A stretch of 64,000 bases of DNA from contig JAZBRI010000003.1 of the NCBI GenBank assembly GCA_036874045.1, positions 17,957,501 through 18,021,500 on the forward strand, written 5' to 3'. The translations under genes and the position numbers were made by a program. Below the pieces are notes generated by a model, which saw only the letters and a list, made by a program, of their open reading frames with translations, was not told the origin of the DNA and searched no databases. Shown here one piece after another: positions 43,601 to 64,000 of this stretch (the stretch's first letter is position 1; every line of letters begins with the position of its first letter). The DNA comes from Cymodocea nodosa. Taxonomy: Eukaryota > Streptophyta > Magnoliopsida > Alismatales > Cymodoceaceae.

Positions 43601-43740
43601 CTATGATTTTATCTTTGCTTTTGTTTCCAAATGTTACACTTCCTTTCTTGGTATTTGTAAAATTTTGTAATAGACTTTTCTGTCCAGTCATGTGACTTGA
43701 CGCTCCACTGTCTAAGATCCATTTTGATGTTATTTCCTCC
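40632..43740 (-). pseudogene. Z: pol (protease, integrase, RT, RNase H)
   Basis: One frame with few stops. Protease DSGASSH-type site near 43720. Integrase zinc region (WHRRIGH, then CNACELGK) and catalytic LIHMDLFG near 43330-43110, HGTEFDNDQ near 42930, QNGIVERKN near 42830. RT has WELVSPPEN and TKWIFRNR at about 42080-42000, DVKSAFLNG at 41835 and IYVDDIIFG at 41580. RNase H has DADYAGSKSDRKSTSG, ALSTTEAEYVA, and HSRAKHIEVRHHFLRD near the end. 41681-40632 is fully open (349 codons). This is a comparatively young copia with only a few stops. Confidence 0.9.
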
Positions 43741-45998
43741 TACAACGCAAATTAAAAAAAACTTTTTCTTGGTACCCAATGTTGTTGAGGACCAAGTTCA
43801 TTAAACGCATATTTCTTCTTTTTGTTTAAAAATAGTTTAACATTATCATTTATATTCTTATTAGTTGTAAGTACTATTGATTTATCATTAGCTTTATACT
43901 CATATATAGCATTATTGCTTTTACAATCATTCTTTTCATTTTCAGATGTAGTATAATCAAGACCAAATGGATTTTTATCAGATTTTAATTTATTTTGGTC
44001 ATGCTCATACATTTCAGTAAGTTCATACCAAGATTTTGTACTTGTATTAACATTTTCCGTACATACAAAATCTTTTTCTACACAAGAATTTTTAGTTTTA
44101 TCACATGCAGAATGAGTAATTGGTCTAATACCAGTGTATTGAATTACATGCTTAGGTTTCTAATTTTTCAGTTTACTACAATTATCTTAAATTTTAGAAA
44201 CATTAGAAACTGAATTTCCAGAACAAGAAACAAGATTTTTAGAAACATTTATAGTCATGTTAGAAGTACAATTTGACAAATCACATTGATTTATATTATT
44301 ACTACATGATTCATCCCTTGAAGTACCTACTTCTACATATTTATTACCTTGTTTCATAATAAAAGGAATTTTAGTCTTAAATTTACTTGAACTGCAACTA
44401 ATAAATCCTTTATTGGCTTGAGATTCAGGATAATCAAATCCTAAGCCAAATTTATAAGACACCGTAGGGGTACTAGTTAGTTTGTATAACTTAGTTTGAC
44501 TTAAATTCCATTTCTCAATGGTAGAATTTAAATCTTGCTCTCTCAGTTTTAATTTATCTATCTCTAATTCAAGTTCATTTATATTGTTTCTCAACATTTC
44601 ATTTTCAGATTCTATCTTTAATTTTTCAGCATTTATATTCTGTATTTGTTCATGCAAGATACATTCGTTAAATCTAAACTTTTGCAAATATCTAGTATGA
44701 TTTTCATTCACATTTAAACTTTTCTAAAGTAGTGGACAGGAAACAATTTTCTTCTTCCATAATGGATGAAGATTTTCTAATATTCTTATTTTTCAATTTA
44801 CATACATTAAGTTTTTATAATAATGCATGATAAGCACATAATAATTCATCAAAGTTGAAATCTGAATGACTTTCAGGATCAGATATTACCTCAGACTCAT
44901 CTGCCATGAAGCACACATGAGCAACATCTTCTAACTCTTGTTCTCCTTCTGAATATAAAGATTTTGATGCTGATTCTTCAGATTCAAACTCTTCAGATGT
45001 GTCATCCCAAGTGACGATCAAAGCCTTTTTCTTGTAAAACTTTTTCTGAGTTTTCTAAGTCGTCTTCTTCTGATTTGTCCTACTTTGCTTTTCATTTTTC
45101 TTCATAGGACAATCTGGAGAAAGATGTCCAGGTTTCTTACAGTTGTAACATACATACTTTCTGGATGAAGAATTCTTGTCATTCAATGATTTTGATGTTG
45201 AGGGTTTATCATTTTGTTCCTTTGCTGTTTCCTAGCTTTCCATGCTTTCTTGAATTTCCTAGTCAGCAAAATCAAATCCTCGTCAGAATCAGTAGATATA
45301 TCAGAATCTGAATTAATTTCGAAGGCTATTTCTTTCTTCATTTTTAGTTTATTTTGACTCAGTGATTCATTTAATTGAATTTCATAAGCTGTTAAGTTTC
45401 CTATAAGTTCATTCATAGTATATACATTTAAATCTCGTGATTCCTCTATTAATGTTACTTTCTGAGACCATTTAGAACTTAGGGATCTGAGAATTTTCCT
45501 CACCAAATCCTTCTGTTCAAAATTCTTTCCTAAACATTTTAAAGAGTTTATGATATCAAGAAATCTGAAAAACATCTTAGAAATATTTTCGTCTTCATGC
45601 ATCTTAAAGAGTTCACACTTATGAATCAACATGTTTATTTTAGTCTCTTTAACTTGAGAAGTACCTTCATGTGAAACTTCTAATGCATGCCACACCTTAT
45701 AAGCAGATTTATATGCTGACACTTTACTGAACTATTCATAACTCAATGCACAAAATAGAATATTTAAGCCCTTAGCATTCAGAGTTTCATTTTCTTTTTC
45801 AGTAATTGTCCAAGTATTATAAGGAGTAGTTAACGGAGTATATGGTTTAAAAATCATGAACCACAACTTATGATCTATACTTTGAAGAAAAATAGTCATC
45901 CTATATTTCCAATATTCAAAATGTATTCCATCAAATAAAGGAGGATGATTAAGATTTTGGCCTTCATATAAAGAAAAATTACCATTTTCAGTAGCCAT
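43741..45998 (-). pseudogene. Z: gag
   Basis: Begins MATENGNFSLYEGQNLNHPP, with the copia gag motif FDGIHFEYWKYRMTIFLQS. Then come a helical capsid region (45722-45183), a CCHC zinc knuckle (CYNCKKPGHLSPDC near 45130), an acidic serine-rich stretch and a coiled coil (44711-44500). One frameshift lies near 44720-45060. It runs into pol in the same frame. Confidence 0.85.
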
Positions 45999-46086
45999 CT
46001 TACCTTAGATTTTTTAACCTATTTGATTTTAAACAGTCTAAAAATTTAAAACAACTTGAGCCTTAAATCAAGAAAGTTAAACGGAT

Positions 46087-46168: not shown

Positions 46169-47305
46169 TAGATTGGTAGTCAGGAGGAAGTAGAAAGAAA
46201 AGAAAATGAAGAAGAAGCTGAACAAGTATATATGGAAAGAAATAACTCTACAAATTCCACTGAAGAGCAAGAAACTCTTCAACAATTTATGGAAAGTATT
46301 CAAGACAGAGTGGAGAGTTCTGCCAACTCACCACCACAAACAAAAGCAGAAGCAAATGTTTAGGAATCTGCAGAACATTTTCAGCAAGTTCAAGTTTAGC
46401 CTATGGAAGAGGAAGATCAAGAACAAACCCCTCTAGAACAACAAAGTCATATTCCTAACCCGACTGAAGCAACAGTTCTGAATGAAGTACACTTTTGGAG
46501 TCAGGAAGCTTATAAAAAATACCAAGAGATTAGGGGTTATGATATCATATACAGTAGACCAGTAAATTGGGACGGAATGCAAGAAATTAAGGAATTATTT
46601 GAGTTCCAAGGTCTACTACATTTTATTTCTCAACAGAAAGGGCATGCAATATATGAAAATCTAGTGCCCTACTTTTATACTAATTTAATAGAAGAAGAAG
46701 GACAATTAATTTCCAACGTGGAGGAAGTTGATGTACAGATAACACTAAAGCTTCTCCACAACATTTGTGGATTGAAGAATGAAGGAAAAGAAATTTTGGA
46801 AAGCACAACTGCGATTGAATAGACAGAGCAGGAAATCAAGGACAGTTTGACTATCAATCCTAGTGTGCCATTATTAAATAGACTGAAGCATTTAAATGGT
46901 GAAGCACACATGATAGCTAACATTTTGATTAAAAATGTCTACCAACGACAATGCCATAACATTGAACTGAGTCAATTTGTCAAGTGGGCCACTTATGCAG
47001 TTGTGAACAGAATTCAAGTTAATTGGTGTCAAGTCTTCCTATCCAAAATGAAATCTGCAAAGAAGAAATTATTTTATGGAGATTTAATACCTATATTGAT
47101 GGTAGACTGTATTGATTTCACGAAATGTACATCCAAAAGGATAAGATCAAGAACCATTTCAGTGAAAGAATACAGAAATTATGCTGCAGTTGAAGTAGCT
47201 GTACCTTCTAGAGGCATTATCGGAGTTGTAGAAAGGATAGAACAATTAGAGCAACAAATAGAAGGACTCCAGAAGGAAGTAGATGAACTTAGGAATAGAG
47301 GCTAA
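46169..47305 (+). pseudogene. Y: third ORF (truncated at its N-terminus by the Z junction)
   Basis: Plus-strand reading frame homologous to X 57110-55972 and to Z's third ORF. Motifs: EIRGYDIIYSRPVNW, ELFEFQGLLHFIS, ICGLKNEGK, a NRIQVNW block, KLFYGD, and a C-terminal coiled coil (RIEQLEQQIEGLQKEVDEL). Stops near 46360, 46398 and 46820. The left end begins abruptly at the junction with Z. Confidence 0.75.
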
Positions 47306-48263
47306 TTGTATAGTTCGTCTACTTGTACTTGTGTACATTTGTATGAAAAATGTTTGAGTTATTGTAATGTATACTATTCATATTAATGAATGTGTGTTTT
47401 TTAGATGTATTTTTCATTCATGTTTGAGAATGATGAAATTGATGAACTACATTGAGTGCTATATAATTTGTGGAACATTATGCATAAATGTTTAAAAAGA
47501 TTTACAATTTGCTGAATGACAGTAACTAATTAATGCCTGAAAATATCTACATGCTGCAAAGAAAAATGTAAATTCTACATAACATGAAATGAACTACAAG
47601 TAAAATATTTATATAATGTTCAGATTTAAATGAATTTTGATTAGAATGCTACATTAATGACATGTATTTAACTTTATTTCAATTAGCAGAGTGCAAAAAA
47701 AAAAAAATAGAGGTACTTACGAAGAGTAAGTTTAGAAAATCTGCTAAGTGTTAACTCAACGAAGTAAGTTCGTTGAATTAACCTTAACTACACAATGTCA
47801 ATAATATAATACAAGGTCACTCCGTTGAGTTATCTCTAACTCAACGAGGTTAGTCTGTGGAGTTAGCAATAGTAACCAAAGCTATTCTGTTGAGTTATCT
47901 GTAACTCAACGAGGTTAGTTCGTGGATTAAGTGGAACGGTTATTCTTTTAGCCACAAATGAAACTTCATCAGCTTAGCGATTACTGAAATTTGAAATTAG
48001 TAGTGGTACACGTACTAATAAAAACAAGAATCACGTTGCACGTTACAAGACACGTTCTTGCAACGAGATTTATTTACTTTATGGATGTGCATTATATATA
48101 TAGAACAGAATATTATTTACAAGTTACTAGCACTTTTGAAAGAAAGGAGAATGCGTTGGGGAACTGGAAGGAGAAGCAGCTGATTCAACTTCATCCGTCA
48201 ACAAATATTTACTGAATGGAAAGTTTTAGACTGGTATGTAATTAATCTTCTACTATTTTATTT
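47306..48263 (+). promoter_or_regulatory. Y: palindrome array, TATA-like box and gag leader
   Basis: 47740-47930 carries repeated palindromes of the form CGTTGAGTTA then TAACTCAACG. A TATATATAG-type box follows at 48092-48104. A conserved splice-donor-like CTG|GTATGTAA lies at 48231-48240, 30 bp before the gag ATG. X has the same arrangement at 55570-55044. The promoter and splicing roles are inferred. Confidence 0.5.
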
Positions 48264-48395
48264 ATGAGCACATGGATTCATTCTCCTAGCACTAAACGAT
48301 TAGTAAGAACACCTACACAAGATTATTCAACACAAAGACGTATTGAAAATTTTTCTGAATTGGACTTTAACAAAATCCTTAGAGGTGTAGCTAAC
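48264..48395 (+). pseudogene. Y: gag, 5' part (cut by X)
   Basis: Starts MSTWIHSPSTKRLVRTPTQD and reads to GVAN, where element X begins at 48396. It continues at 61441. The homologous uninterrupted stretch in X is 55043-54900. Confidence 0.8.
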
Positions 48396-50627
48396 TGTTT
48401 GTGTTTTCCCAGCACGACATCAGAATATCTAATTAGATCTCCAATAACGTACCAGAAAAACTTGGATTCGTTACTTCTATTTTTTCTAAGTTAATTTATC
48501 TTTATGCCTATTCTTTCTTTTAGAAGTAAACAAATAACCTTTAATACAATTTAGATATTAATTCCAATTTGTACTTTAACTCCAAGTGCACAGTGTCTAT
48601 TATATCAGTGTGCAAGTACAGGTTGATCCCACAGGGAATTGCTGAAGAACTTGAGAACTGTTCGTTTGTTAATAATCAAATTTATATATTCAATAAGCTC
48701 TTCGTTGAATTACAGTTAACTCAACGGACAAAGTTCATTGAGTTATAGCTAACTCAATGGACTAACCTTGTGAACTTAAGTTAACTCCACGAGCTTGTCT
48801 TTTCTTTTTAAATACTGCAATTTACAAAAGAATTCGACCAACCATTGGGCGATTCTACAGATTGTAAATAACATCAATTAAGCTCTTTAATGTTAGTAAA
48901 CACTGGATTTATCATTAAGCAATACTAACATTCAGATAATTCAAACAATAATCATTAAAATCTTTAAGTCTTTTAAACGAACCAATTTCAGTAAACTGTA
49001 AACTAAAACAACATAAAACAATCACAACACTTACAAAGATAACATTAATCATGATACAACACTCAAATAAAACATACAAACATAGATAAATTGTTTTTGG
49101 TTTTTTTTTTTTAATATGAACATGGAAATGGGCGAAAGGTGAAATGTAAAGTAATCTCACTCGACAGTAAATACTTCTGACACTACTTGCAACGCGATTA
49201 CACTGCTGAAAATTAAACCACTTACAATTCTGTCTCCTATCCCTATAGAATCATGAGTCTAGAATTACAAGATATTCTTCTCTTCAGCATACAGGCATCA
49301 ACCCGAAGTCAAGGCTAAAAGTTTTACGATCTCCTAAAATATGAGTCGGCGCTTGGTGAAAATGGCTTCCCTTCCCGCAACGCGATCACTCCTCACAGTG
49401 GTTGTCAGGCACTATGTTTGGCTCGGAATCGACCCGACATCAAGAAAGTATTCTCATAGACCTCCGATGGTTGGTGATTATGGTGGTGATGGTGGTGGTA
49501 ATGATAGTTGTTATGGTACTTTAGAGAATTGCCGATATTGCCTGCAGAAAGCTCGGTACTCCTCCTCTGTACACACTAGCCGTCCATCGATCACACACGC
49601 ACCCTTTTCTTCTTTTTCTCCTTTTCTTTTATATTTCTTCAGTAGTAACTACTTCTACTTGAATGGTCGGTTGGATTTCCTTCATTCATATCAACGGCAG
49701 TGATTTCTTCTCCCTACGCAATACATGCAATCGTGGTTTTTCTTCCAACTGTCCTGTTTCTGCAACCGCTACAGTGGCATATTAGAAAATAAATAGTCCG
49801 TAGAGTTACAAATAACTCAACGGACTTTCTTCGTTGCTTTAACTATAAAGCACGTCCATAAATTTAACTATCCAATGCTCAGGTGCATTTCGGATACTTA
49901 TAAACTTAACTATCCGATGTTTAGATGCATTTTGGATAGTTACAAATAACTCACCGATATATAACTTAAGTAAATCTACTAGATATCGACACGTGTCAGT
50001 AGTAGTTTAATCATAAAATACACATTTCGGAGAGTTACATGTCTAACTATCCGATGTTCAGATGCATTTCAGATAGTTAGAGATAACTCACCGAAAATCC
50101 ACTTAAGTCACTTTACTAGAACATGACATGTGTCCTCAGCTATTTTATAAATAAAAAGAGATTTTGGAGGGTTACACATATAACTGTCCGATGCTCAGCT
50201 GCAATTTCAGATAGTTATAGATAACTCACCGAAAATTCACTTAATTCATGCATTATGGTTTTGACACGTGCACTTCTGGAAATAATAAAATATTCTTTCA
50301 AAACATAACTATTCGGCAATATAAACATAACTATCCAACATGTTCAATCTGTTAAACATAATTGTCTGAAATATGTTCGGTATGTTAAACATACTGTCCA
50401 AAATATCAGAAAATTCAGATACTTAAGAATTTCACAGCCTGCAACTTACCAACAATTCAAAAATATACTAAATTAACATTAATTCTCCAAAATTAAGCAG
50501 ATTCTTCAATTAAAGTATATAACAATGCAATTATAACATAATTGCTTAATTCTCATATGATAAGCTAAATATTATGCAATTAACCATCATTTAACTGTTA
50601 ATAATATGCACTTTTTCATTCTAAACA
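48396..50627 (-). repeat. X: 3' LTR
   Basis: 2,232 bp, TG...CA ends. It matches 59220-61440 along its whole length with many C/T and G/A differences. It contains CGTTGAGTTA-type palindromes (48700-48800, 49795-49845) and the modular array at 49865-50275. Confidence 0.92.
49865..50275. promoter_or_regulatory. X LTR: three-copy module with palindrome and CACGTG
   Basis: Three units of about 130 bp. Each has a CTATCCGATG box, a palindrome TTTCGGATAGTTA ... TAACTCACCGAAA, an ACTTAAGT box, and a GACACGTGTC-like site at its end (exact at 49988; GACATGTGTC at 50125; GACACGTGCAC at 50262). The same units occur in the other LTR (60690-61100), and related ones in the copia Z LTR. Confidence 0.65.
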
Positions 50628-50640
50628 CTTCCCCCATACC
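50628..50640 (-). other. X: polypurine tract
   Basis: GGTATGGGGGAAG on the minus strand abutting the 3' LTR. A near copy (TAGGTATGGGGGGAGG) lies at about 51961-51976. Confidence 0.85.
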
Positions 50641-52390
50641 TAAATTTTGCTAGTCCCTTAGCAAACTAAGATCTAATTAATTGGTCTTTCAAAAAGTGCT
50701 AGAATTAATTCTTCTTCTTTCTTTTTTTCTTTTGTTCAACATAAAAATATATTCTGTCTGTTTCAGTAATCAACCTGCAAATACTTAGAATATATATCAA
50801 TTACAAACAAAGTACATCATCATCACATAGGTGTTAATTATATTATCGTTTATTCTTCTTTTCATTATCTGCCATCCTGAATTTTTCAATAAGATTTCTA
50901 GAAGAAATTTCAACAACATATGAATCAAAATACAATCCAATTCAATCTGATTAAGACAAGTAGAATAAAGAATTGTATCTTCATTAAACAACTTCAAAAG
51001 TCAATTCTAAATTCATATTTCAGCAATTCTAGATAACAGAAAATATACTCGATTCATAAGATATCTGTATTTCACAAAACACTTGTATCTTTTCATACCA
51101 GTATATGTATATATATATATATATATTTTTTCTCTTTTTTTTTTTCGTACTTTAAAAGTTAATTTGACAAGCTTGAATCATACAAGAGCTTTCTAATGTA
51201 CCCATGTAACGAGCTTTCAATCAACAATCCTAGATCTGATCAGGATCTTAAGTTGCGAGATTTCAAGAGTCCTTTTTCAGTTCAACAATCCTTACATACC
51301 TATTTGCTCAAGTACAAAAGGCTCATGATCAAACAAGTCAATAAACTCTCAAAATTTTCTCTTTTTTTCTTTCTTTTTTTTTTTTAAAAAAAAAATACAC
51401 ACAAAACAAAGCATTAATCACATACTATATATGTACGTATTTCATTGATATAGATGAAGTAAAACACCAATCTCATATAGTCCTACTTCTATCATTTACT
51501 GAAAATATGAATCCATAACAGTGAGCTCATACTTTTTTGTAGTTTAATAAGATCTACACATAAATCATTCTATAAGTTCAATCAATCAAATTAAATGTAT
51601 CTTTAATCATATGTATTTCATTTAATCTAGAATTCACATCTTAGCTCCTTCAGGACTTTAGATAATTTACTGATTTTTCATTAAGCATTCTGATTTCATT
51701 TTAAAATTGTGAAATTGTTAAACTCATGAAATTCAGAAAAAATATAAGATACTATATCTAGATTTGCATAAATAGTAAATTCTATAGCATCTTATATAGC
51801 CTTCTAACTATAGCATTCAAGCAGTTATAGATTATAAATTTTACAGTCTCAATTATCGGATAGTTACAGCAAGTTCATAAAAATTTTCAATTTCCATAAC
51901 TTTGCAGTACCATTTTAATTTCTTTAATTAATAAACTTACATGGCTGTTACTTTAATTACCTCCCCCCATACCTACATTTTGCATTGTCCTCAATGTAAA
52001 AGATTTGGCAGTAAATACAGTAATTGTAGCAGACATGAATACTGTTTTGTTGATTTAAAATTCAGGATAAGTAATTAGTTACATACCTTATTCCGTTTGT
52101 ATCTACTTCTACATATTCCAATTTTTTATTCTGAAAAACTTTTCATTCACAGATAAAAGCAAAATATAAAACAAAATAACACTTACAGATATTAATAAAT
52201 TAGTGTCTTGTGTGAAACCTAGACTCCTATGCCTCTGGTGGCTCACAAGCAAGCCAGTTGGTTTCCTAGAATAGATACCAATAAACTGGATTGATATATT
52301 TTTTTAAAAAAATAAAATAAAATGAAAACTATATTTTTTTTTTAAAAATAAATGTAGAATACACACAACACTAAACACACAAAATCACAG
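50641..52390 (-). other. X: spacer between F-box gene and purine tract
   Basis: Non-coding. It contains poly(T) runs and a TA microsatellite (51100-51125), and the stretch 50860-51760 that is homologous to the spacer of copia Z at 39640-40480. Confidence 0.7.
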
Positions 52391-53509
52391 ATTAAGAACA
52401 TGATTGAAAAGTAGGAACAAATGGAATAAATGTATCAGTCCAAGCAAACTTTTTAGGCATAGTTCTTCTTGCTATTAATTCTATTTTCATGCAATTCTTG
52501 CTCCTTCTTAATTTGTAAACATATAATATATTATAAATTCCAAATACAAGTGTATTACCATTAATGATATGAAATGCAGAAAGGGATCCTTTTTAGTTCC
52601 AAGGTAATGTAGCAATTTCTATTTCTACATCTATTTCAATATACTCCTCTTCCCACTTCCATTCATTAATATCTTCCATAATTCATATTTGAAATTTCAT
52701 CAATTCATCCTACCATCTTATCAGACATAAAGTAGGATCATCTTCTTCATTATACCACATTCCTATTTGAATTTTATTAAATTCTGCAGATGGTGGTTTA
52801 GCTATATCACTCGGTATAGGTAAAATTTCTATATATTCATCACAACTGTCTATGCTCACTATGTATAAATTAGATCCAAATGCAATTAATATATCTGTGA
52901 CAAGATATATATATCCATCAAGTATGACATGTGTTCGAGATATATCATAATATTTTCATTTCAAGATCTATTCAGAAAATTATACACACTTAAGCGTAAA
53001 TCTTCACCCCAATTTCCTGTAGGTCTCCAATAATATAATTTTTCAGGAATTGCAGAATATTTATCAGAAAATATTAAAGCTGACCTACAATTTACAGTTG
53101 GTACTTCAAATCTATTAGGTCTTCTTATATTCCATTCTTCTCCTGTTATAGGATTTCTTATCAAAATATCAGGTAATAATAAACTTGCATACCTTGGTCT
53201 TGTCCTGTATATGATTAATCCTTCATCTATCCCCATAATATGATTTATTCCTTCTAATGTATTGGGTGGAATTCCAGTAGTTTCTTTCATCGCAAGATAT
53301 TCATGAGTATTTGAACTACGATTAAATGACCTCCATATGAATCTATCTCTAATCTTAGTCATTTTTGCAACTTGTAGTCCCTAAAAATATTTTTCTTCAA
53401 TATAGTTTTTAATTTCCTTTGATGCACAACATAACCTGCACAGATCTTTAGCTGACAAGTTACTCAGTACTTCCCTTAGTGCATCCAACGGTAATTGCAT
53501 CAATTCCAT
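52391..53509 (-). pseudogene. X: captured F-box protein gene
   Basis: 373 codons in one frame from ATG at 53509, with stops. Residues 5-50 form an F-box: LPLDALREVLSNLSAKDLCR then LCCASKEIKNYIEEKYF. It is followed by a region like plant F-box-associated domains (IDEGLI/IYRTRPRY-type strand, GEEWNIRRPNRFEVP, KLYYWRPTGNW), roughly 370 residues as in plant F-box proteins. Such proteins are substrate receptors of SCF ubiquitin ligases. The C-terminal part (52960-52391) has stops, so this copy is probably inactive. It lies between gag and the purine tract. A sister copy in Y occupies the same position. Confidence 0.75.
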
Positions 53510-53518
53510 TTGTTGATT

Positions 53519-53520
53519 CT
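53519..53520 (-). other. X: candidate splice acceptor before F-box ATG
   Basis: TTGTGTTATATAG|AATCAACAA then ATG. The same nine-base leader and an AG acceptor precede the F-box ATG in Y (62805-62806). The pairing donor candidate is at 55072-55071. Confidence 0.45.
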
Positions 53521-53574
53521 ATATAACACAAACAAAAATTTAGCAAAGACAAAAAATTAACATAACTATTATAC

Positions 53575-53640
53575 ACCCTCGTGGAGTTAAGGCATAACTC
53601 AACGGACTAAGTTCGTTGAGTTAAGAACTAACTCTACGAT
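53575..53640. repeat. X: palindromes between gag and F-box gene
   Basis: CGTGGAGTTA, TAACTCAACGG, CGTTGAGTTA and TAACTCTACG occur in succession. Confidence 0.65.
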
Positions 53641-53699
53641 ACTATTAACTAAAAATAAAAACACATATACATACAGATAGTTACTTCAGATATGCTGCT

Positions 53700-55043
53700 T
53701 CATTCAGCTATCCTCCTAGAAGAGGTATCAATTTCATTAACCGTTTTATTGGCAGGATTAGGTATAGCTTGTATTGGCAATCCTCTAGTAGGTCTAACTT
53801 CCATTGGTTCCTTCTGTCTAAGTGGTATATTTCTATTTTGATTTTGAATTGCAGCACTTCCAAATACAAAATCTAGATGATTGTTTAATTGTTGGATTAT
53901 CTTTTCTAATTTCTCTATTCTAGATCCTTGTTCCAGTAATGCTTCATAACTTATATTCTTCTCATTCACATTTTCTCCTCCCTGGAAATTGTTGTTTCTC
54001 CAAGATAAATTTGGGTGATTTCTCTAATTAGGATTATAAGAATTTCTCAAGTTATCTCTCTGGTTTCTAGCATAAATAATATTTAAATCATTTATGTTTG
54101 CATTCTTTTCTACTAGCTTTTGATTTAATGATAACTCTTCTATTTTCTTTGTTAATTCAATTAATTTAACCTCAAGCATAGTACTTGAATCTATTTCATG
54201 CATTCCTCTTGGCAATATTTTTTTATTTGCAATAGCTTCAGCCGAGTTTTCCCACTATGCAGTTCTTTTTGCAAAGTTTTCTAAATATGCCCATGCTTCT
54301 TCACTACATAACTTTAAAAATCCATTTTGACAAGTAGATTCTAATAAAGATTTCATTGAAACATCTATGCCTTCATAAATTATACCTATTAATTGTGCCT
54401 TACTCATTGCATGATGTGGACATTGAGTCAATAAATCTTTAAATCTTTTAAAATATTTCCAAAATGATTCTCCCTGTTTTTGGCTACACATTAATATTTC
54501 TTTCTTCTTTCTAATCGTTTGATGTGTTGGATAATATTTTTACAGAAAAATAGAGCAAAATTCAGTCCATGTAGAAATTGAATCAGGCGATAGAGTATAT
54601 AACCATCTCTTAGCTGTGTCTTTTAAAAAAAAAGGGATATATCTAAGTTTAATAGCATCTATACTTATGTTCGACATTTTCATCATTTGACAAACTTCAT
54701 TAAATTCTCTAAGGAAATAATAGGCATCCTCTCTTTCTAATCCATGAAAATGTGGCAATTGACTAATATAATTAGATTTCAGTTCAAACCTATCTCCCTC
54801 AAAGTTTGGCAATCGAATTCAAGAAGGTTCATCAACTAATTTTGGATACAGAATCTCTCCTAATGGTTTTTCTACTGAAGCAGCTATCTCTACGTTCTCT
54901 TTTAAAGAAAGGTTAGCTACACCCCAACGAATTTAGTTAAAGTTCAGTTCAGAAAATTTTTCAGTACTCCTCTGCAATGAAAATTCCTAGGTAGGTATTC
55001 TTACTAATCGTTTAGTGCTCAAAGAACGAGTCCATGTGCTCAT
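53700..55043 (-). pseudogene. X: gag
   Basis: 448 codons in a single frame with several stops, start MSTW at 55043. It contains an Athila-type gag core: LPNFEGDRFELKSNYISQLP, LKDTAKRWLYTLSPDSISTW, a FWKYFKRFKDLLTQCPHH motif and SEEAWAYLENFA. A coiled-coil tail follows. No zinc knuckle was seen. Gag lies downstream of the third ORF, not next to the PBS as in ordinary elements. Confidence 0.85.
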
Positions 55044-55600
55044 AAATAAATAGCAGAAGATTAATTACATACCAGTCTGAAGCTTTCCATTCAGTAAATA
55101 TTTGTTGTCGAATGAATTCGAATCAGCTGCTTCGCCTTCCAGTTCCTCCAACGCATTCTCCTTTCTTTTAAAAGTGTTAGTAACTCGTAAATAACATTCT
55201 GATTTATATATATAATGTACATCCATAAAGTGAATAAATCTCGTTGCAAGACATGTTCTTGCAATGTGCATCGTGGTTCCTATTTTTATGGGTACGTGTA
55301 CCACTATTAATTTCAAATTTTAGTAACCGCTAAGCCGACGAAGTTTCGTTCGTGGTTAAAAGAATAACTGTTCTGCTTAATCCACGAACTAACCTCGTTG
55401 AGTTACAGATAACTCAACGGAACACAGTCAGTTACTGTTGCTAACTCCATAGACTAACTTTGTTGAGTTACAGATAACTCAACGGAGTGACCTTATATTA
55501 TATTACTGACCTCGTGGAGTTACGACTAACTCAACGAACTTACTTCATTGAGTTAACACTTAGCAACCTCTAAGTTTTACTCTCATAAGTTCCTATCTGT
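55044..55600 (-). promoter_or_regulatory. X: palindrome array, TATA-like box and gag leader
   Basis: 55376-55565 carries four to five palindromes of the CGTTGAGTTA ... TAACTCAACG type. A TATATATAA-type box is at about 55204-55216. A donor-like CTG|GTATGTAA is at 55073-55066, just before the gag ATG. All are conserved in Y. Confidence 0.5.
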
Positions 55601-55971
55601 TTTTTTTTTTTCTTTTAACTGAAATAAAGTTAAATCTATGTCATTAATGCATCATTCTAATCAAAATTCATTTAAATCTGAACATTATATAAAGATTTAA
55701 CTTGTAGGTCATTTTATGTTATACAGAATTTACATTTTACCTTGCAACATGCAGAAATTTTTAAGCATTTATCCTGTCATTCAGCAAATTGTAAATTTGT
55801 TACATATTCATTCATAAAGTTCCACAAATTACATAATATTCAATAAATTCCATTCATTTCACATCCAAAACATGTATGAAAATTGCACTTGAAAAATTAT
55901 ATTCATTAATATGAATCAATTACAATACAAGTACATCATACAATTTTACACAAGTAGACGAACAATACAAT

Positions 55972-58347
55972 TTAATCTCTATTCCTAAGTTCATCTACTT
56001 CCTTCTGGAGTTTTTCTAATTGAAGTTCTAATTGACTAATTCTTTCTACAACTCCTGTAATGCCTCAAGAAGGTACAGCTATCTCTGGAGCTACAAAATT
56101 TCTGTATTCTTTCACTGAAATGGTTCTTGATCTGATCTTTTTTGATGTCCATTTAGTGAAGTCGATACAGTCCACCATTAGTAGTGGAATCAAATCTCCA
56201 TAAAACAATTTTTTCTTTACTATTTTCAACTTGGAGATAAAAACTACAGGCCAATTTATTTGAATCCTATTTACAACTGCATATGTGGCCCATTTGACAA
56301 ATTAACTTAATTCTATGTCATGGCCCTATCGTTGATAGACATTTTTAATCAAAATGTTAGCTACCATGTGTGCTTTACCACTTAAATGCTTCAATCTGTT
56401 TAATAAAGGCATACCAGGATTGATAGCTAAACAATCCTTAATTTCCTGTTCAGTCCACTCGACAACAGTTGTGTCTTCCAAAATTTTTAGTCCTTCATTC
56501 TTCAATCCAAAAATGTTGTGGAGAAGCTTTGGTGTTATCTGTACATCAGCTTCCTCCACGTTTGAAATTAATCCTCATTCTCTTTCTCTTAAATTTGCAT
56601 AAAAATAGGGCACTAAATTCTCATATACTACATGCCCTCCTTCTTGAGAAATGAATTGCAGTAGACCTTGGAATTCAAATAGATCTTTGATTTCTTGCAT
56701 TTCATCCCAATTTACTGGTCTACTGTAAATAATGTCATAACCCCTTATTTCTTGGTATTTGGTATAAGCTTCCTGACTACAAAAATGTACTTCATTCAAA
56801 ATTGTTGTTTCAGTCGGGTCAAGAAGGTGACTTTGTTGTTCTAGAGGGGTTTGCTCTTGCTCTTCCTCTTCTATGGGCTGCATTTGAACATTCTCTACAG
56901 ATTCCTGAATTTTTGCTTTTGCTTCAGTCTGTGGTGGTGAGCTAGCAGAACTCTCCACTCTGTCTTGAATTCTTTCCATAAATTGTTGAAAAGTTTCTTG
57001 CTCTTCAATGGAATCTGTGAAATTATTTTTGTCTAAATGGCTTCTTTCAGCCTCTTCATCTTCTGCTCTTTCTTCTTCCTCCTGACTACCAATCTATTCT
57101 TTCTAATTCTATAACAGATTGGGATGGAGTCACGGGCAATTCTGTTTCTGCCCTAATTTCTGTTTCTTCTTGTACAAGTTGTAGACTAATTTCAGCTTGA
57201 TTTTCTTCTTTTCTTTGCTACTGCTGCTGTAGCTCCTACTCCTCCTCAGAACCGGATAGCAGGTTTATAAAAATTTACTCCACAGACCTTGTAAAAATTA
57301 GTACTTCAGATTTAATCTCTTCTTGATAGTCAGACACTATCTCTTTTCCTTTCCTTTTTCTAATTAATTGTGCCTATTCTTCCTCTTCTTCTTCTGAGAT
57401 TAAATCTACAAAAGTAGGCTCTACAGGCCTTCGAGTCATAGGTACTGGCTCTTCCTGTTTAACTTTTTCTATAATTACTGGTCTCGAAGGACCAGCCTCA
57501 TCTCCTTTTGCAGCAGGTTTGGTAGTAGCTTCTTGATGCTGTTCCATTTTGATTTTATATTGGGCTTTCAACTTTTCTGCAGCCCTCTTTTTGTAAAGTG
57601 CATCAAACACTAGGTGTGCTTTAGCCACTACCAAATCTTCTGATTCTCCTTGGTTTTTCCCAACTTGAACCAGTGCTTGAAATTCCTTTAACTCTTCTTC
57701 AATCGAAGGCCCCATCATTTCTGCTTTTGCCAACGGCTTAAATGGTGGAATTGAAGGTCCTAGCTGTTGTTCCTCAGGAACAAGTCTTTTAGTAGTCGGC
57801 TCTTCCTATTCTTCAGTTGCCTTTTGTTGTTCCTGCCGCCATATTTCCCAACTTCCTCGACCAGCAATGTGTTTCTTAAACCATAATTTGGCTTTACGTT
57901 GAATTAGCTCTAAGGCTACTTCATTGTTTAGCCGGATTTTTCTTTCTTTGCTTACAGTAATTTCTGTTGCTACTCTAATTTGTGTCTCCATTATCTGGGG
58001 TATTTGTATACCACAATCTACTAATATTCTTCTTAATCTAAAAAGTTCAGATTCTACCTTCTGTAACTCTTTTCTCTCGTCATATTTCTGATCTTCTGTC
58101 GCGTGTACCATTCTTCTGATTCCTTTAGAAATTCTGATGTATCAACAGCCTCTTCCTAGAATTCAGGTGTCATCTTCCTCATCGTGGAGTTACTCAACAG
58201 CATGGAATCACTCTGATTTCTACTGTTGTAGATTCTAAATGATTTTCCAGATAATGCCCCCAAAACCCTAGGTTTAAGATAAATAAGCCTTAAGTTTAGG
58301 CAGGTAATTGGGTCATTTCTCGAACCAACTATTACTATCTCATCCAC
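55972..58347 (-). pseudogene. X: third ORF (long coiled-coil and FEFQGL-domain protein)
   Basis: About 790 codons read over two frameshifts. The N-terminus has MDEIVIVGSRNDP. Then come a helical segment (58111-57806, RKELQKVESELFRLRRIL), an acidic and glutamine-rich middle (57733-57000), and a C-terminal domain with EIRGYDIIYSRPVNW, DLFEFQGLLQFIS, FYANL, FGLKNEG, a NRIQINW block and a closing coiled coil. Homologous to Z 36756-39050 and Y 46169-47305. Function unknown. Confidence 0.75.
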
Positions 58348-58361
58348 GGTCTTAGCTATAG

Positions 58362-58470
58362 TACTCCGTTGAGTTACAGTTAACTCAACGGAATAAACTC
58401 GTTGACTAACTCAAGACTCAACGGAGTAAGCTCGTTGAGTTAAGCGTAACTCAACGAACTTCCTATACAA
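58362..58470. repeat. X: palindrome array upstream of third ORF
   Basis: Four successive CGTTGAGTTA / TAACTCAACG type palindromes, two of them perfect. Followed toward 58720 by poly(T), TA microsatellite and GGTCGGTTGAACCG sequence. Confidence 0.75.
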
Positions 58471-58713
58471 ACAGATATAATAATAAAAATACTACACATA
58501 ATAGTTTTTCTTTTTTTTTTTCTTTTTTTTTTACCAGTTTAACCAATACTATGTTTTGGTCAGACCTAATTTTTTTTTTTTCTAAAAATTAATATACATA
58601 TTTTCTTATGTTCCGGTCATACCGATGGATCGGTCGGTTGAACCGTAACGATTTTTATATTATATATATATTTATTTATTTATTTTAATGTATTTTATAT
58701 ATATATATATATA

Positions 58714-59121
58714 TTATATAAACATAAAAACTGATTTCTTACTAAGAAAGCTCGAGTAGTCCTCTACTCTAACTTCTTTTATAATTCCAAAGGAGCTTTT
58801 TGGTGTTTTCAGAATAGGTCTAAGTCTTTGTCCATTTACTTTAAATATATTCTGATTTTTAGGATTTTCAATTTCAATAGCTCCATAAGGATAAATATTT
58901 CGAACTATGTAAAGTCCTGCCCATCTAGATCTTAATTTTCCTATATGGTTATGGAGTCTAGCCATATAAAGATATATTTCTTGTCCTATTTCGAAGCTTT
59001 TTGGAATAATTTTTCTATCATGCAAGAATTTAATTTTCTCTTTTTCACATATGCTAATTACAGGTTTCAGAAATCTTTGAGCATAAGCAAATGCCAAATT
59101 CTCAATTACAGAAGAAAACAA
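58714..59121 (-). pseudogene. X: integrase C-terminal fragment (Athila-like)
   Basis: 135 open codons containing FLHDRKIIPKSFEIGQ, LYMARLHNHIGKLRSRWAG, YPYGAIEIENPKN and FKVNGQRLRP. These are the hallmark end of Athila integrase (GKLRSRWSGP, AVEIENPKN and FKVNGQRLK in relatives). All preceding pol domains are absent, and it starts only about 75 bp after the PBS. Confidence 0.85.
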
Positions 59122-59194
59122 ACAACTCTCTCGCTATTAAAACGAAAGAGCTCTAATAGTTGCTTATATCTAGTCAATTCAATTCAATTCAATT

Positions 59195-59212
59195 CCCTAG
59201 CAACAGTGTCAT
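59195..59212 (-). other. X: primer binding site (decayed)
   Basis: TGACACTGTTGCTAGGGA, a few bases after the 5' LTR, is the usual gypsy TGGCGCCGTTGCCGGGGA with five transitions, most at CpG positions. Confidence 0.75.
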
Positions 59213-59219
59213 AAAACTT

Positions 59220-61440
59220 GTTTGTGTTTTCCCAACACGACACCAGAATATCTAATTAGATCTTCAATAATGTACCAGAAAAACTTGGATTTGTTACTTC
59301 TGTTTTTACTGAATTAATTTATCTTTATGTCTATTCTTTCTTTTAGAAGTAAACAAACAACCTTTAATATAATTTAGATATTAATTCCAATTTGTACTTT
59401 AACTGCAAGTGCACAGTGTCTATTGTATCAATGTGCAAGTGCAGGTCGATCCCATAGGGAATTGCTGAAGAACTTGAGAACCGTTCATTTGTTAATAATC
59501 AAATTTATATATTCAATAAGCTCTCCGTTGAATTACAGTTAACTCAACAAACAAAGTTCGTTGAGTTATAGCTAACTAAAAGGACTAACCTCGTGGACTT
59601 AAGTTAACTCTATGAGCTTATCTTTTCTTTTTAAATACTGCTATTTACAGAGGAATTCGGCCAACCATTGGGCAATTCTACAGATTGTAAATAACATCAA
59701 TTAAGCTCTTTAATGTTAGTAAACATTGGATTTATCATTAAGCAATACTAACATTCAGATAATTCAAACAGTAACCATTAAAATCTTTAAGTTTTTTGAA
59801 CGAACCAATTTCAGTAAATTGTAAACTAAAACAACATAAAACAATCACAACACTAACAATGACAACATTAATCATGATACAACACTCAAATACAACATAC
59901 AAACATAGATAAATTGTTTTTGGTATTTTTGTTTTAATATGAATATGGAAATGGGCGAAAGGTGAAATGTAAAGTAATCTCACTTGACAGTAAATACTTC
60001 TGACACTACTTGCAACGCGATTACACCATTGAAAATTAAACCACTTACAATTCTATCTCCTCTCCCTATAGAATCGTGAGTCCAGAATTGCAAGATAATC
60101 TTCTTTTCAGCATACAGGCATCAACTCGAAGCCAAGGCTAAAAGCTTTATGATCTCCTGAAATATGAGTCGGCGCTTGGTGAAAATGGTTTCCCTTCTTG
60201 CAACGCGATCACTCCTCACAGAGGTTGTCAGACATCGTTTTTGGCTCGGAATCGACCTGACATCAAGAAAGTATTCTCATAGACCTTCGATGGTTGGTGA
60301 TTATGGTGGTGATGGTGGTGGTAACGATGGTTGCTGTGGTACTTTACAGAATTGCCGATACTGCCTGCAGAAAGCTTGGTACTCCTCCTCTATACACACT
60401 AGCCGTCCATCGATCACACACGCACCCTTTTCTTCTTTTTCTTCTTTTCTTTTATATTTCTTTAGTAGTAACTGCTTCTACTTGAATGGTCAGTTGGATT
60501 TCCTTCATTCATATCACTGGCGGTGATTTCTTCTCCCTACGTAATACATGCAATCATGGTTTTTCTTCCAACTATCATGTTTCTGCAACCGCTATAGTGG
60601 CATATTAGAAAATAAATAGTCCATGGAGTTACAGATAACTCAACGGACTTTCTTCGTTGCTTTAACTATAAAACTTGTCCATAAATTTAACTATCCGATG
60701 CTCAGGTACATTTCAGATACTTATAAACTTAACTATCCGATGCTCAGATGCATTTCGGATAGTTACAAATAACTCACTGATATATAACTTAAGTAAATCT
60801 ACTAGATATCGACACGTGTCAGCAGCAGTTTAATCATAAAATACACATTTCGGAGAGTTACAGGTCTAACTATCTGATGCTCAGATGCATTTCGGATAGT
60901 TAGAGATAACTCACTGAAAATCCACTTAAGTCACTTTACCAGAGCATGACACGTTTCCTTATCTATTTTATAAATAAAAAGAGATTACGGAGGGTTACAC
61001 ATATAACTGTCCGATGCTCAACTGCAATTTCGGATACTTATAGATAACTCACCGAAAATTCACTTAATTCATGCATTATGGTTTTGACACGTGCACTTCT
61101 GGAAATAATAAAATATTCTTTCAAACATAACTGTTCGACAATATAAACATAACTATCTGACATGTTCGGTCTATTAAACATAACTGTCCGAAATATGTTC
61201 GGTATGTTAAACATAACTATCTGAAATATCAAAAAATTCGGATACTTAAGAATTTCACAGCCTACAACTTACCGACAGTTCAGAAATGTACTAAATTAAC
61301 ATTAATTAAGCAGATTAATCAATTAAAGCATATAACAGTGCAATTATAACATAATGGCTTAATTCTCATATGATAAGCTAAATATTATGCAATTAACCAT
61401 CATTTAACCGTTAATAATATGTACTTTTTCATTCTAAACA
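59220..61440 (-). repeat. X: 5' LTR
   Basis: 2,221 bp. It starts TGTTTAGAATG on the minus strand at 61440 and ends CACAAACA at 59220. It includes the same module array (60690-61100) and palindromes as the other LTR. Confidence 0.92.
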
Positions 61441-62661
61441 CTAACCTTTCTTTAAAAGAGAATGTAGATAAGGCTGCTCTAGTAGAAAAACCATTAGGGG
61501 AAATTCTCTATCCTGAATTAGTTGATGAACTTTCATGTATTCGATTACCAAACTTTGAGGGAGATAGGTTTGAATTGAAATCTAATTATATTAGTCAATT
61601 GCCACATTTCATGGATTAGAAAGAGAGGATGCCTATTATTTCTTTAGAGAATTTAACGAAGTTTGTCAAATGATGAAAATGCCGAACATGAGTATAGATG
61701 CTATTAAACTTAGATATATCCCTTTTGCTTTAAATGACACAGCTAAGAGATGGTTATATACTTTGTCGCCTGATTCAATTTCTACATGGACTAAATTTTG
61801 CTCTGTTTTTCTAGAAAATATTATCCAACACATCAAACGATTAAAAAGAAAAAGGAAATATTAATGTGTAGCCAAAAATAGGGTGAATCATTTTGAAAAT
61901 ATTTTGAAAGATTTAAAGATTTACTGACTCAATGTCCACATCATGCAATGAGTAAAGCACAATTGATAGGTATAATTTATGAAGGCATAGATGTTTCAAC
62001 GAAATCTTTATTAGAATCTACTTGTCAAAATAGATTTTTAAAATTGTGTAGTGAAGAAGCATGGGCATACTTAGAAAAATTTGCAAAAAGAACTATACAG
62101 TGGGAAAACTCAGCTGAAGTTATTGCAGATAAAAGAATATTGCCAAGGGGAATGCATGAAATAGATTCAAGCACTATGCTTGAAGTGAAATTAACTGAAT
62201 TAACAAAGAAAATAGAAGAGTTATCATTAAATCAAAAACTAGCAAAAAAGAATGCAAACATTAATGATCTAGATATTATTTATGCTAGAAACTAGAAAGA
62301 TATCTTTAGAAATTCTTATAACCCTAATTGGAGAAATCACTCGAATTTATCTTGGAGAAACAATAATTTCCAGGGAGGAGAAAATATAAATGAGAAGAAT
62401 ATAAGTTATGAAGCATTAATTGAACAAGGATCTAGAATAGAGAAATTAGAAAAGATAATCCAACAATTAAACAATCGTCTAGATTTTGTATTTGGAAATG
62501 CTGCAATTCAAAATCAAAATATAAATGGAAATATACCCCCTAGACAGAAAGAATCAATGAAAGTTAGACCTACTAGAGGATTGCTAATGCAAGCAAAACC
62601 TAACCTTATTAACAGAACTGTTAATGAAATTGATGCCTCTTCTTGGAGGGTAGCTGAATGA
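61441..62661 (+). pseudogene. Y: gag, 3' part
   Basis: Continues Y's gag from 48395 after the X insertion: NLSLKENVDKAALVEKPLGE, LPNFEGDRFELKSNYISQLP, DTAKRWLYTLSPDSIS and SEEAWAYLEKFAKR. Frameshifts near 61610 and 61865, stop near 62296, final stop at 62659-62661. Confidence 0.85.
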
Positions 62662-62804
62662 AGCAGTATATCTGAAGTAACTATATATTTATATAAGTTT
62701 ATTTGTAGTTAATAGTATCGTTGTGTTATGCCCTAATTCCACGAGGGTATGTAGTAGTTATGTTAATTTTTGTCTCTGCTAAATTTTTTGTGTTTATGTA
62801 ATAC

Positions 62805-62806
62805 AG
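62805..62806 (+). other. Y: candidate splice acceptor before F-box ATG
   Basis: TTTTTTGTGTTTATGTAATACAG is pyrimidine-rich and ends in CAG. The following AATCAACAA leader and ATG at 62816 are identical to X. Confidence 0.5.
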
Positions 62807-62815
62807 AATCAACAA

Positions 62816-63952
62816 ATGGAATTGATGCAATTACCATAGGATGCACTAAGTGAAGTACTAAGTAACTTGTCAGCTAAAGATCTGTGCAGGTTGTGTTGTG
62901 TATCAAAGGAAATTAAAGACTGTGTTAGAGAAAAATATTTTCATAGACTACAAGTTGCAAAAATGACTAAGATTAGAGATGGATTCATATGGAAGTCATT
63001 TAATCATAGTTCAATCAGCCATGAATATCTGAAAATGGAAGAAACTACTAGAATTCCAACTAATACATTAGAAGGAATAGATCATATTTTGGGGATGGAT
63101 GAAGGATTAATTATATATCGGACCAAACCAAGGTATGCAATTCTATTACCTAATATTTTGATCAAAAATCCTAACACAAGAGAAAAATGGAATATAGGAA
63201 GACCTAATAGATATGAAGTACCAACTAAAAATTGTGGGTCGACTTTAATATTTTCTGATAAAAACCCGACCATTCTTGAAAAATTATATTATTGGAGACC
63301 TACAAGAAATTGGGTTGAAGATTTATGCTTGAGTGTGTATAATTTTCTGAATAGATCTTGGACTGAAAACACTATGATATATCTAGGATAGAAATCATTA
63401 ATTAACAACATGCATGTCATACTTGATGGATATATATATCTAGTCTCAGATATATCAGTTGCATTTAGATTTGATTTATACATAGTAAGCATAGATAGTT
63501 ATGATGAATATATAGAAATTTTGCCTATACCATGAGAAATAGCTAAACCACCATCTACAGAATTTGATAAAATTCAAATAGGGATGTGGTATAATGAATA
63601 TGATGATCCTACTTTATGTCTGATAAGATGGTGGGATGAGTTGATGAAATTTCAAATATGGATCATGAAAGACATAAATGAATGGAAGTGGGAAGAGGAA
63701 TATATTGAAATAGATGTAGAAATAGAAACTGCTACATTATCCTAGAACCGAAAAGGATCCTGTTCTGCACTTCATTTCATTAATGGTAATACACTTGTAT
63801 TTAGCATTGATAATATATTGCAAGTTTACAAATTAAGAAGGAACACAAACTGCATTAAAATAGAATTAATAGCAAGAAGAATTATGCCTAAAAAATTTGC
63901 TTGGATTGACACGTTTATTCTATTTGTTTCTACTTTTCAATCATGTTCTTAA
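62816..63952 (+). pseudogene. Y: captured F-box protein gene
   Basis: 379 codons including the stop, one frame throughout, with only a few internal stops (the first in the F-box itself, LP*DAL). F-box motif EVLSNLSAKDLCRLCCVSKE, then KYFHRLQVAKMTK. The F-box-associated region includes GMDEGLIIYRTKPRYAILL and KLYYWRPTRNW. The C-terminal half is also recognisable (WDELMKFQIW, KWEEEYIEIDVEIETATL, SCSALHFINGNTLVFSIDN). It reads through better than the X copy and gives the clearest view of the captured gene. Confidence 0.78.
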
Positions 63953-64000
63953 GGTATGATTTTGTGCTTTTAATGTTGTGTTTTCTGCATTTACTTTTAG

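What the first reader, a model, noticed from the sequence alone, without database searches (positions are those of the whole stretch)
52391..63952. A retrotransposon family that carries an F-box protein gene
X (53509-52391) and Y (62816-63952) both hold a roughly 375-codon F-box gene between gag and the purine tract. The F-box motif (LPxDALxEVLSNLSAKDLCR) is followed by an F-box-associated type region. Two family members share the position, the leader and the reading frame, so this is a fixed cargo of the family and not a chance capture. An SCF receptor on an element could redirect host ubiquitination, for example against silencing factors. That role is pure inference.
Basis: partly seen in the sequence, partly recalled or inferred. 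Interest (0 to 1): 0.92.

Follow-up and report, generated by a model that had tools for sequence, protein, structure and literature searches.

The report
Retrotransposon family carrying spliced F-box gene
A plant jumping-gene family that lacks its own copying enzymes carries a gene resembling plant protein-destruction adaptors, has spread it to many places in the genome, kept it under selection, and appears to switch it on by splicing.

Summary
X and Y are F-box genes (PF00646, 40 bits for Y, cut-off 20.5) just downstream of gag in two copies of one LTR element family. X belongs to a complete 13-kb minus-strand element (48396-61440) nested in Y; no pol was found. In the 375-Mb host assembly, 19 of 19 systematically sampled top F-box hits are copies of this cargo, 109 of 109 scored relatives are full length, and one start-site pattern occurs 1,602 times (2 mismatches allowed). 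The F-box frame is under purifying selection: omega 0.34-0.50 for variants shared between copies, near 1 for private variants and wrong frames, similar to gag. New here: 193 sites match (17 exactly) a junction in which gag has been removed as a GT-AG intron and the leader runs straight into the F-box start. So the F-box is most likely made from a spliced mRNA, as retroviruses make Env, and spliced RNAs were copied back into DNA; one gag-less lineage then multiplied. The protein most likely docks on host SKP1 and redirects SCF ubiquitination: inferred, not tested. A single flax copia element with an F-box gene has been reported (PMC5142383); I found no family like this one. Not found: transcripts, pol-bearing partner, progenitor gene.

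The parts
59219..61440 (-). 5' LTR of element E (the element that contains X)
   Evidence: 92.6% identical direct repeat with 48396-50628; starts TG, ends CA; TSD CTAAC at 61441-61445 and 48391-48395
59194..59211 (-). primer-binding site of E, tRNA-Asp type
   Evidence: 13 of 18 to the recalled tRNA-Asp complement, shuffle P 0.0002; copy L016 has 17 of 18
58714..59133 (-). ORF resembling the end of an Athila-type integrase (resemblance recalled; no Pfam match)
   Evidence: open 139 aa; conserved in L020, L021, L026, L028
55972..58141 (-). ORF1 of E (broken)
   Evidence: second copy in Y at 46169-47305 and copies in other loci; omega 0.43-0.65 over 9 copies
55072..55073 (-). splice donor ACTG|GTATGT, 30 nt upstream of the first in-frame gag ATG
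   Evidence: GT kept in 8 of 8 gag copies inspected; exact left edge of the missing segment in spliced copies
53700..55043 (-). gag of E (broken)
   Evidence: PF03732 71.8 bits; omega 0.29-0.58 over 11 copies
53519..55072 (-). GT-AG intron that holds the whole gag ORF (1554 nt)
   Evidence: absent with exact ends in L013 and L026 and, with drift, L023; junction pattern at 193 genomic sites with up to 2 mismatches; 6 of 6 fetched sites confirmed
53518..53519 (-). splice acceptor TATAG|AATCAACAA, 9 nt upstream of the F-box ATG
   Evidence: AG kept in 17 of 20 copies viewed and 7 of 8 of L029-L036
52392..53509 (-). X: F-box gene of element E (broken)
   Evidence: PF00646 35.8 bits for the 5' part; matches Y at 72% and 81% protein identity in two pieces
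50629..50638 (-). polypurine tract ATGGGGGAAG of E
   Evidence: directly abuts the 3' LTR
48396..50628 (-). 3' LTR of element E
   Evidence: 153 mismatches in 2221 aligned against the 5' LTR, K2P 0.073
46169..48395 (+). Y element, 5' part (ORF1 and leader), interrupted by E; its 5' end is lost, probably to a copia element
   Evidence: 82.7% identical to 57096-54912; Y donor exon end at 48233
61441..62661 (+). Y element, gag (broken)
   Evidence: inverted match to E gag; PF03732 just below its cut-off on one fragment
62816..63952 (+). Y: F-box gene (4 internal stops, single frame)
   Evidence: PF00646 40 bits

Best explanation
This is a large family of pol-less (non-autonomous) LTR retrotransposons, probably of the Athila branch of Ty3/gypsy, with the order LTR, PBS, integrase-end-like ORF, ORF1, gag, F-box, PPT, LTR. 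The F-box gene is a long-standing accessory gene that selection has maintained (shown from the sequences). Unspliced RNA is the template for gag. Removing gag as a GT-AG intron joins the leader to the F-box ATG and makes the F-box mRNA. The splicing is recorded in DNA: spliced RNAs were reverse transcribed and integrated more than once, and one gag-less lineage multiplied (strongly supported). The F-box protein most likely binds host SKP1 through its N-terminal motif and uses its C-terminal domain to bring a substrate to an SCF ubiquitin ligase, to the benefit of the element, perhaps against a host restraint (inferred).
For: F-box domain in 11 of 11 copies scanned. The pattern LPxDxLxxVLxxLSxKxLCxLxCVSK is invariant or nearly so in an 11-row alignment that includes members only 54-65% identical to the first. 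Copy number: 109 of 109 scored hits full length at 85-100% identity out of 7004 first-look candidates, 14 of 109 without an internal stop; 1,602 unspliced start sites with up to 2 mismatches, reversed control 0. Linkage: 14 of 19 systematic loci have gag beside the F-box, 3 have the spliced junction, 2 are undetermined. Selection: omega 0.91 for private variants, 0.50 shared by 2 or more, 0.34 shared by 4 or more, 23 copies; wrong frames 0.84-1.22, not significant; 7 pairs at 54-67% amino-acid identity 0.40-0.54, P 0.001 or less. X versus Y with LTR-calibrated decay removed: 0.33, interval 0.05-0.84. Splicing: junction at 193 sites, control 0; 6 of 6 fetched loci confirmed; on trees of 30 and 42 copies the spliced state needs 6 changes, 5 forced by well-supported branches; 11 of 12 fetched copies with one junction variant fall in one lineage apart from the long row L047.
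Against: No transcript, protein or SKP1 interaction was seen. FBA domain below cut-off; structure model poor (pLDDT 35.7). Stops are shared among copies (codon 161 in 8 of 18, 193 in 5, 97 and 274 in 4 each, others in 2-3), so either mutational hotspots recur or broken copies also multiply; shared stops are only about halved against expectation (7 against 14.1 for variants in 3 or more copies, P 0.019). Close pairs of open copies show little constraint (omega 0.65, 0.67, 0.75; P 0.024, 0.095, 0.099). In the gag-less lineage 12 of 12 fetched F-box frames are broken and constraint is marginal (shared variants 0.63, P 0.045). Some changes of the spliced state may be reversals by recombination: unspliced L017 lies inside the gag-less lineage. 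Protein searches found no relative of the F-box at E 10, so its origin is unknown.
Confidence: 0.6

Rival explanations
1. The F-box works inside the element's own cycle: it times turnover of Gag or of the partner's enzymes rather than attacking a host factor.
For: It is kept in the same transcript unit as gag under selection similar to gag. A host-directed benefit shared by all copies would be weakly selected in each copy (reasoning).
Against: Gag-less copies exist at many sites and one lineage multiplied. But the F-box frames fetched from that lineage are all broken (12 of 12), so this argument is weak.
Confidence: 0.22
2. The protein is a selected accessory protein but does not act through SKP1 and SCF.
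For: Only motif-level evidence for SKP1 binding; C-terminal fold unproven.
Against: The motif looks the most constrained part: omega 0.32 for codons 2-45 against 0.45 for the rest (variants in 3 or more copies; the difference itself was not tested).
Confidence: 0.13
3. A passive passenger: a host gene fragment captured once and copied along without function.
For: Most copies are broken and some stops are shared. Captured genes are common in plant LTR elements (PMC3726574) and a flax copia element has captured an F-box gene (PMC5142383).
Against: Purifying selection that strengthens with variant sharing, open frames in 14 of 109, and constraint between subfamilies only 54-67% identical.
Confidence: 0.04
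4. A host F-box gene family whose members happen to lie beside retrotransposons.
For: F-box genes are numerous in plants (general knowledge).
Against: Fixed position, spacing and splice sites between gag or leader and the 3' UTR and LTR in the loci examined.
Confidence: 0.01

Closest known systems
Flax Ty1-copia element (RLC_Lu6) with an F-box gene between its LTRs (PMC5142383, one passage read)
   Same: An LTR retrotransposon that carries an F-box gene.
   Different: One example, a copia element with RNase H, reported in three sentences as gene capture; here a pol-less gag-bearing family in very many copies, with selection and a splice switch.
Athila / Calypso / Diaspora lineage of plant Ty3/gypsy elements (PMC1142308, passages read)
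   Same: tRNA-Asp primer site; some members have a third gene; that paper proposed that spliced RNA could be reverse transcribed and so lose a gene.
   Different: No pol found here; the third gene is an F-box, not env-like; here the lost gene is gag and the junctions are seen in the DNA.
Phalaenopsis Ty3/gypsy elements with an AlkB-type m6A demethylase ORF (PMC9289625, passages and section 12 read)
   Same: Host-type regulatory protein kept as an extra ORF through amplification.
   Different: Those elements have pol and an RNA demethylase; here a pol-less element with an F-box protein.
EVADE / Ty1-copia shGAG splicing in Arabidopsis (PMC8892269, passages read)
   Same: A plant LTR element divides genes between spliced and unspliced RNA.
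   Different: There splicing produces Gag; here splicing removes Gag and produces an accessory protein.
TR-GAG non-autonomous elements (search listing only; definition recalled)
   Same: LTR, PBS, PPT and gag without pol.
   Different: Extra ORF1, integrase-end-like ORF and F-box; gag-less derivatives.
Polerovirus P0, a viral F-box protein that targets Argonaute (recalled, not read)
   Same: F-box protein encoded by a parasite of plants.
   Different: A virus in an unrelated sequence context; no target is known here.

Membership tests
LTR retrotransposon | paired LTRs, TSD, PBS, PPT | tested here: met
Athila lineage (Ty3/gypsy) | tRNA-Asp PBS | tested here: met
   L016 17 of 18, E 13 of 18; tRNA end recalled
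Athila lineage (Ty3/gypsy) | Athila-type gag | tested here: inconclusive
   PF03732 above cut-off; one protein hit, Henckelia pumila, 43% identity over 32% of the query, labelled uncharacterized; calling it Athila-type is recall
Athila lineage (Ty3/gypsy) | placement in an RT tree | not testable with these tools
   no pol found in E
Athila lineage (Ty3/gypsy) | PF20167 (Transposase_32) domain in the extra ORF | tested here: inconclusive
   13.1 bits for the Y copy of ORF1, cut-off 45
plant F-box proteins | F-box domain | tested here: met
plant F-box proteins | C-terminal substrate domain of FBA type | tested here: inconclusive
   FBA_1 13.8-17.6 bits, cut-off 21.1; 3 of 11 members at E 0.1 or better
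plant F-box proteins | binds SKP1 | not testable with these tools
   none
TR-GAG | gag but no other coding region | tested here: not met
   F-box and ORF1 present

The most novel reading that the evidence does not exclude
A plant retrotransposon family has evolved a retrovirus-like accessory gene: an SCF substrate receptor, expressed by splicing out gag, that removes a host silencing or restriction factor, so that the genome now holds well over a thousand element-borne F-box genes.
Probability: 0.33. Interest if true: 0.93.

Novelty: new variant of a known kind. Interest (0 to 1): 0.76.

Why it matters
Fixed extra protein domains in plant LTR elements are considered rare and informative about host-element conflict (abstract of PMC9289625), although a review holds that extra ORFs occur in most lineages (PMC12786077, passage). 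The screen of 121 angiosperm genomes in PMC9289625 was anchored on reverse transcriptase, so a pol-less family like this would escape it. Here the cargo is a likely ubiquitin-ligase receptor under selection, with an expression switch that can be read from genomic DNA. It makes testable whether retrotransposons counter host restraint by protein degradation. It also warns that F-box counts in plant genomes can be swamped by transposon copies.

Tried and rejected
Led nowhere: protein searches for the F-box and PDB sequence searches (one chance-level hit); viral contigs; Rfam (no match); structure prediction (pLDDT 35.7, only three helices then strands noted; no fold search made); FBA_1 genome search (31 candidates, 0 matches; the control genomes gave none either, so not evidence of absence); search for the pol-bearing partner through the integrase-end ORF (13 attempts, all busy); host progenitor (not looked for directly; only best hits are scored and these are mostly element copies). 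One non-element F-box gene (L005/L009) aligns co-linearly with the element protein but at probability 2.7%, E 0.017, so I claim nothing from it. NG86 omega for X/Y was dropped because a wrong frame gave a similar value (0.47 against 0.45 and 0.73); a spectrum-corrected test replaced it. Confidence was lowered from 0.62 to 0.60, the novel case from 0.35 to 0.33 and interest from 0.80 to 0.76 for the flax precedent and the broken gag-less frames; the first rival rose from 0.20 to 0.22. Rows: L010 and L014 were left out of the omega sets and of the control frames, being divergent or ill-framed. Same place twice: L001=L010, L004=L011, L005=L009, L007=L012, L038=L013, L029=Y.
Full report
Check of the observation. 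Y (62816-63952, +) is one frame of 378 codons with four internal stops. X (53509-52392, -) is the same protein with its own stops and a frameshift. PF00646 scores 40 bits for Y and 35.8 for the 5' part of X (cut-off 20.5). FBA_1 is only suggested (13.8 and 17.6 bits, cut-off 21.1). No stop position in the F-box frame is shared by X and Y, whereas 30 of 42 in frame +1 are shared, so the ancestor of both was open.

Anatomy. X is inside a complete element E on the minus strand: LTRs 61440-59219 and 50628-48396 (153 mismatches in 2221, K2P 0.073), TSD CTAAC, tRNA-Asp-type PBS, PPT ATGGGGGAAG. E is inserted in Y, whose halves are 46169-48395 and 61441-64000 on the plus strand; the TSD and the uninterrupted sequence of X across the same point show this. 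Order in E: integrase-end-like ORF (resemblance recalled; no Pfam match), ORF1, gag (PF03732, 71.8 bits), F-box, 1.8 kb of 3' UTR. No E ORF that I scanned is a reverse transcriptase (some of under 90 codons were not scanned), and the unassigned gaps (about 0.9 and 1.8 kb) are too small for a full pol. E is therefore taken as non-autonomous.

The family in the genome. The window lies in an unnamed assembly of 374.6 Mb in 28 contigs; that it is a plant is inferred from its elements and hits. PF00646 gave 4219 first-look candidates, of which 150 were scored. I fetched ranks 1, 4, 7 ... 55 (19 loci) and rank 5: 19 of 19 of the systematic sample carry this F-box, rank 5 does not. Beside the F-box, 14 of 19 have gag, 3 have the spliced junction and 2 are undetermined. 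The Y protein gave 7004 first-look candidates, 109 scored: 109 of 109 span residues 1-378 to within one residue at either end, at 85-100% identity, and 14 of 109 have no internal stop. The 8 loci fetched from that search, one of them Y, all have gag upstream. A 24-nt pattern across acceptor and F-box start occurs 1,602 times with up to 2 mismatches (reversed control 0). Other start variants exist, so this is a lower bound.

Selection. I compared observed synonymous and nonsynonymous variants with random placement of the same base changes. X against Y: omega 0.64, P 0.015, and 0.33 (0.05-0.84) after subtracting decay calibrated by the LTRs of E. In 23 copies omega falls from 0.91 for private variants to 0.50, 0.43 and 0.34 for variants in at least 2, 3 and 4 copies. 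Gag (11 copies: 0.58, 0.39, 0.29) and ORF1 (9 copies: 0.65, 0.43, 0.48) behave alike, and F-box frames +1 and +2 give 0.84-1.22, not significant. Seven pairs of subfamilies 54-67% identical in protein give 0.40-0.54. Against this: close pairs of open copies give 0.65-0.75 with weak or no significance. Stops at codons 161, 193, 97 and 274 occur in 8, 5, 4 and 4 of 18 copies, and shared stops are only about halved against expectation. Codon 161 shows three different stop codons, which points to recurrent mutation, but multiplication of broken copies in trans is not excluded. The F-box motif seems more constrained (0.32) than the rest (0.45), a difference I did not test.

Splicing. In L013 and L026 the leader ends CTTCAGACTG and continues directly AATCAACAAATGG, the F-box start. 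In gag-bearing copies the first part is followed by GTATGT, 30 nt before the first in-frame gag ATG, and the second is preceded by TATAG or TACAG. L023 shows the same junction with drift. Gag is thus removed exactly as a 1554-nt GT-AG intron (E 55072-53519). The junction occurs at 193 places with up to 2 mismatches, 17 of them exact, control 0, and 6 of 6 fetched places confirm it (one is L013 again). Donor GT is kept in 8 of 8 copies and acceptor AG in 17 of 20 and 7 of 8. On a tree of 30 copies, 8 spliced, the state needs 6 changes, 5 forced by well-supported branches; 103 of 500 shuffled labels do as well, so the spliced copies are scattered. With 12 more copies bearing one junction variant the state still needs 6 changes, 5 forced. 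Apart from the long row L047, those copies fall in one lineage together with L037 and the unspliced L017, so a gag-less lineage multiplied. L017 suggests that recombination can restore the unspliced state, so changes are not all losses. In that lineage 12 of 12 F-box frames are broken; shared variants give omega 0.63, P 0.045, private ones 1.05. The plainest reading: the element makes a spliced leader-F-box mRNA, and such RNAs were reverse transcribed more than once.

How it most likely works. Shown: the element structure, copy number, constraint on the F-box frame, the exact intron. Inferred: that the F-box mRNA is translated, that the protein binds SKP1, that it directs ubiquitination, and what it targets. 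I favour a host target that restrains the element. A benefit shared by all copies would be weakly selected per copy, so a role on the element's own particle or RNA is a serious rival.

Comparison. The tRNA-Asp primer site points to the Athila/Calypso/Diaspora lineage (PMC1142308, passages), but without pol the lineage cannot be proved. That paper proposed gene loss through reverse transcription of spliced RNA; here the junctions are seen, with gag as the lost gene. A direct precedent for the cargo exists: PMC5142383 (one passage) reports a flax Ty1-copia element with an F-box gene between its LTRs, as a single case of gene capture. The AlkB ORF in Phalaenopsis gypsy elements is the nearest parallel for a retained regulatory gene (PMC9289625, passages and section 12). 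That screen covered 121 angiosperm genomes and 25,565 consensus sequences anchored on reverse transcriptase; its main text does not contain the word F-box, but not all 15 domains are named in the section and its supplement was not seen. The rice and sorghum survey of captured genes (PMC3726574, passages) does not contain the word either. A fungal table lists an F-box gene beside a Gypsy element name (PMC4905642, one passage), without detail. PMC6135824, PMC13310191 and PMC7602945 (passages) mention F-box genes but no element cargo in the passages shown. PMC3072373 and PMC12888819 were seen in the listing only. Splicing to divide genes between RNAs is known in EVADE (PMC8892269, passages). The eight searches that held the term F-box were made; the library lacks most subscription journals.

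Verdict. It is a new variant of a known kind: an LTR retrotransposon with an extra ORF, here an F-box gene kept by selection across a large pol-less family, with a splice switch that the genome itself records.

Noticed in passing
window 40635-46004 (-): A Ty1/copia element (Retrotran_gag_2 82 bits, gag_pre-integrs, RVT_2) whose gag end lies beside, and probably truncates, the 5' part of Y near 46169.
   Followed up: partly
window 36966-39086 (-) and 8479-9464 (+): Two distant relatives of the element's ORF1 (about 30-37% identity) with no gag or F-box hit of this family beside them; the second lies between LTR-like repeats 6380-7186 and 9962-10837 (73%).
   Followed up: partly
window 49886-50159 and 60709-60982: A 137-bp unit repeated in tandem inside the LTRs. 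Several fetched loci hold LTR pieces in reverse orientation, hinting at nested insertion of this family into itself.
   Followed up: no
window 27317-27652 (+): A separate Ty3/gypsy remnant with an RT_RNaseH domain (55 bits); whether it is related to the missing pol-bearing partner is unknown.
   Followed up: no
L002 and L008 (contig C12, about 190 kb apart): Two divergent F-box copies, about 61% identical in protein to Y, that differ from each other at 5 of 534 compared bases: a recent insertion pair or a segmental duplication.
   Followed up: no
L005 / L009 (contig C19): A 452-aa open F-box gene that is not an element copy and resembles the F-box/kelch type (recalled); the only place among those fetched without a match to this family.
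   Followed up: partly
L017 against L043-L054 (contigs C1, C3, C6, C7, C11, C12, C13, C15): The unspliced copy L017 sits inside the gag-less lineage on the tree, which suggests recombination between spliced and unspliced copies.
   Followed up: no
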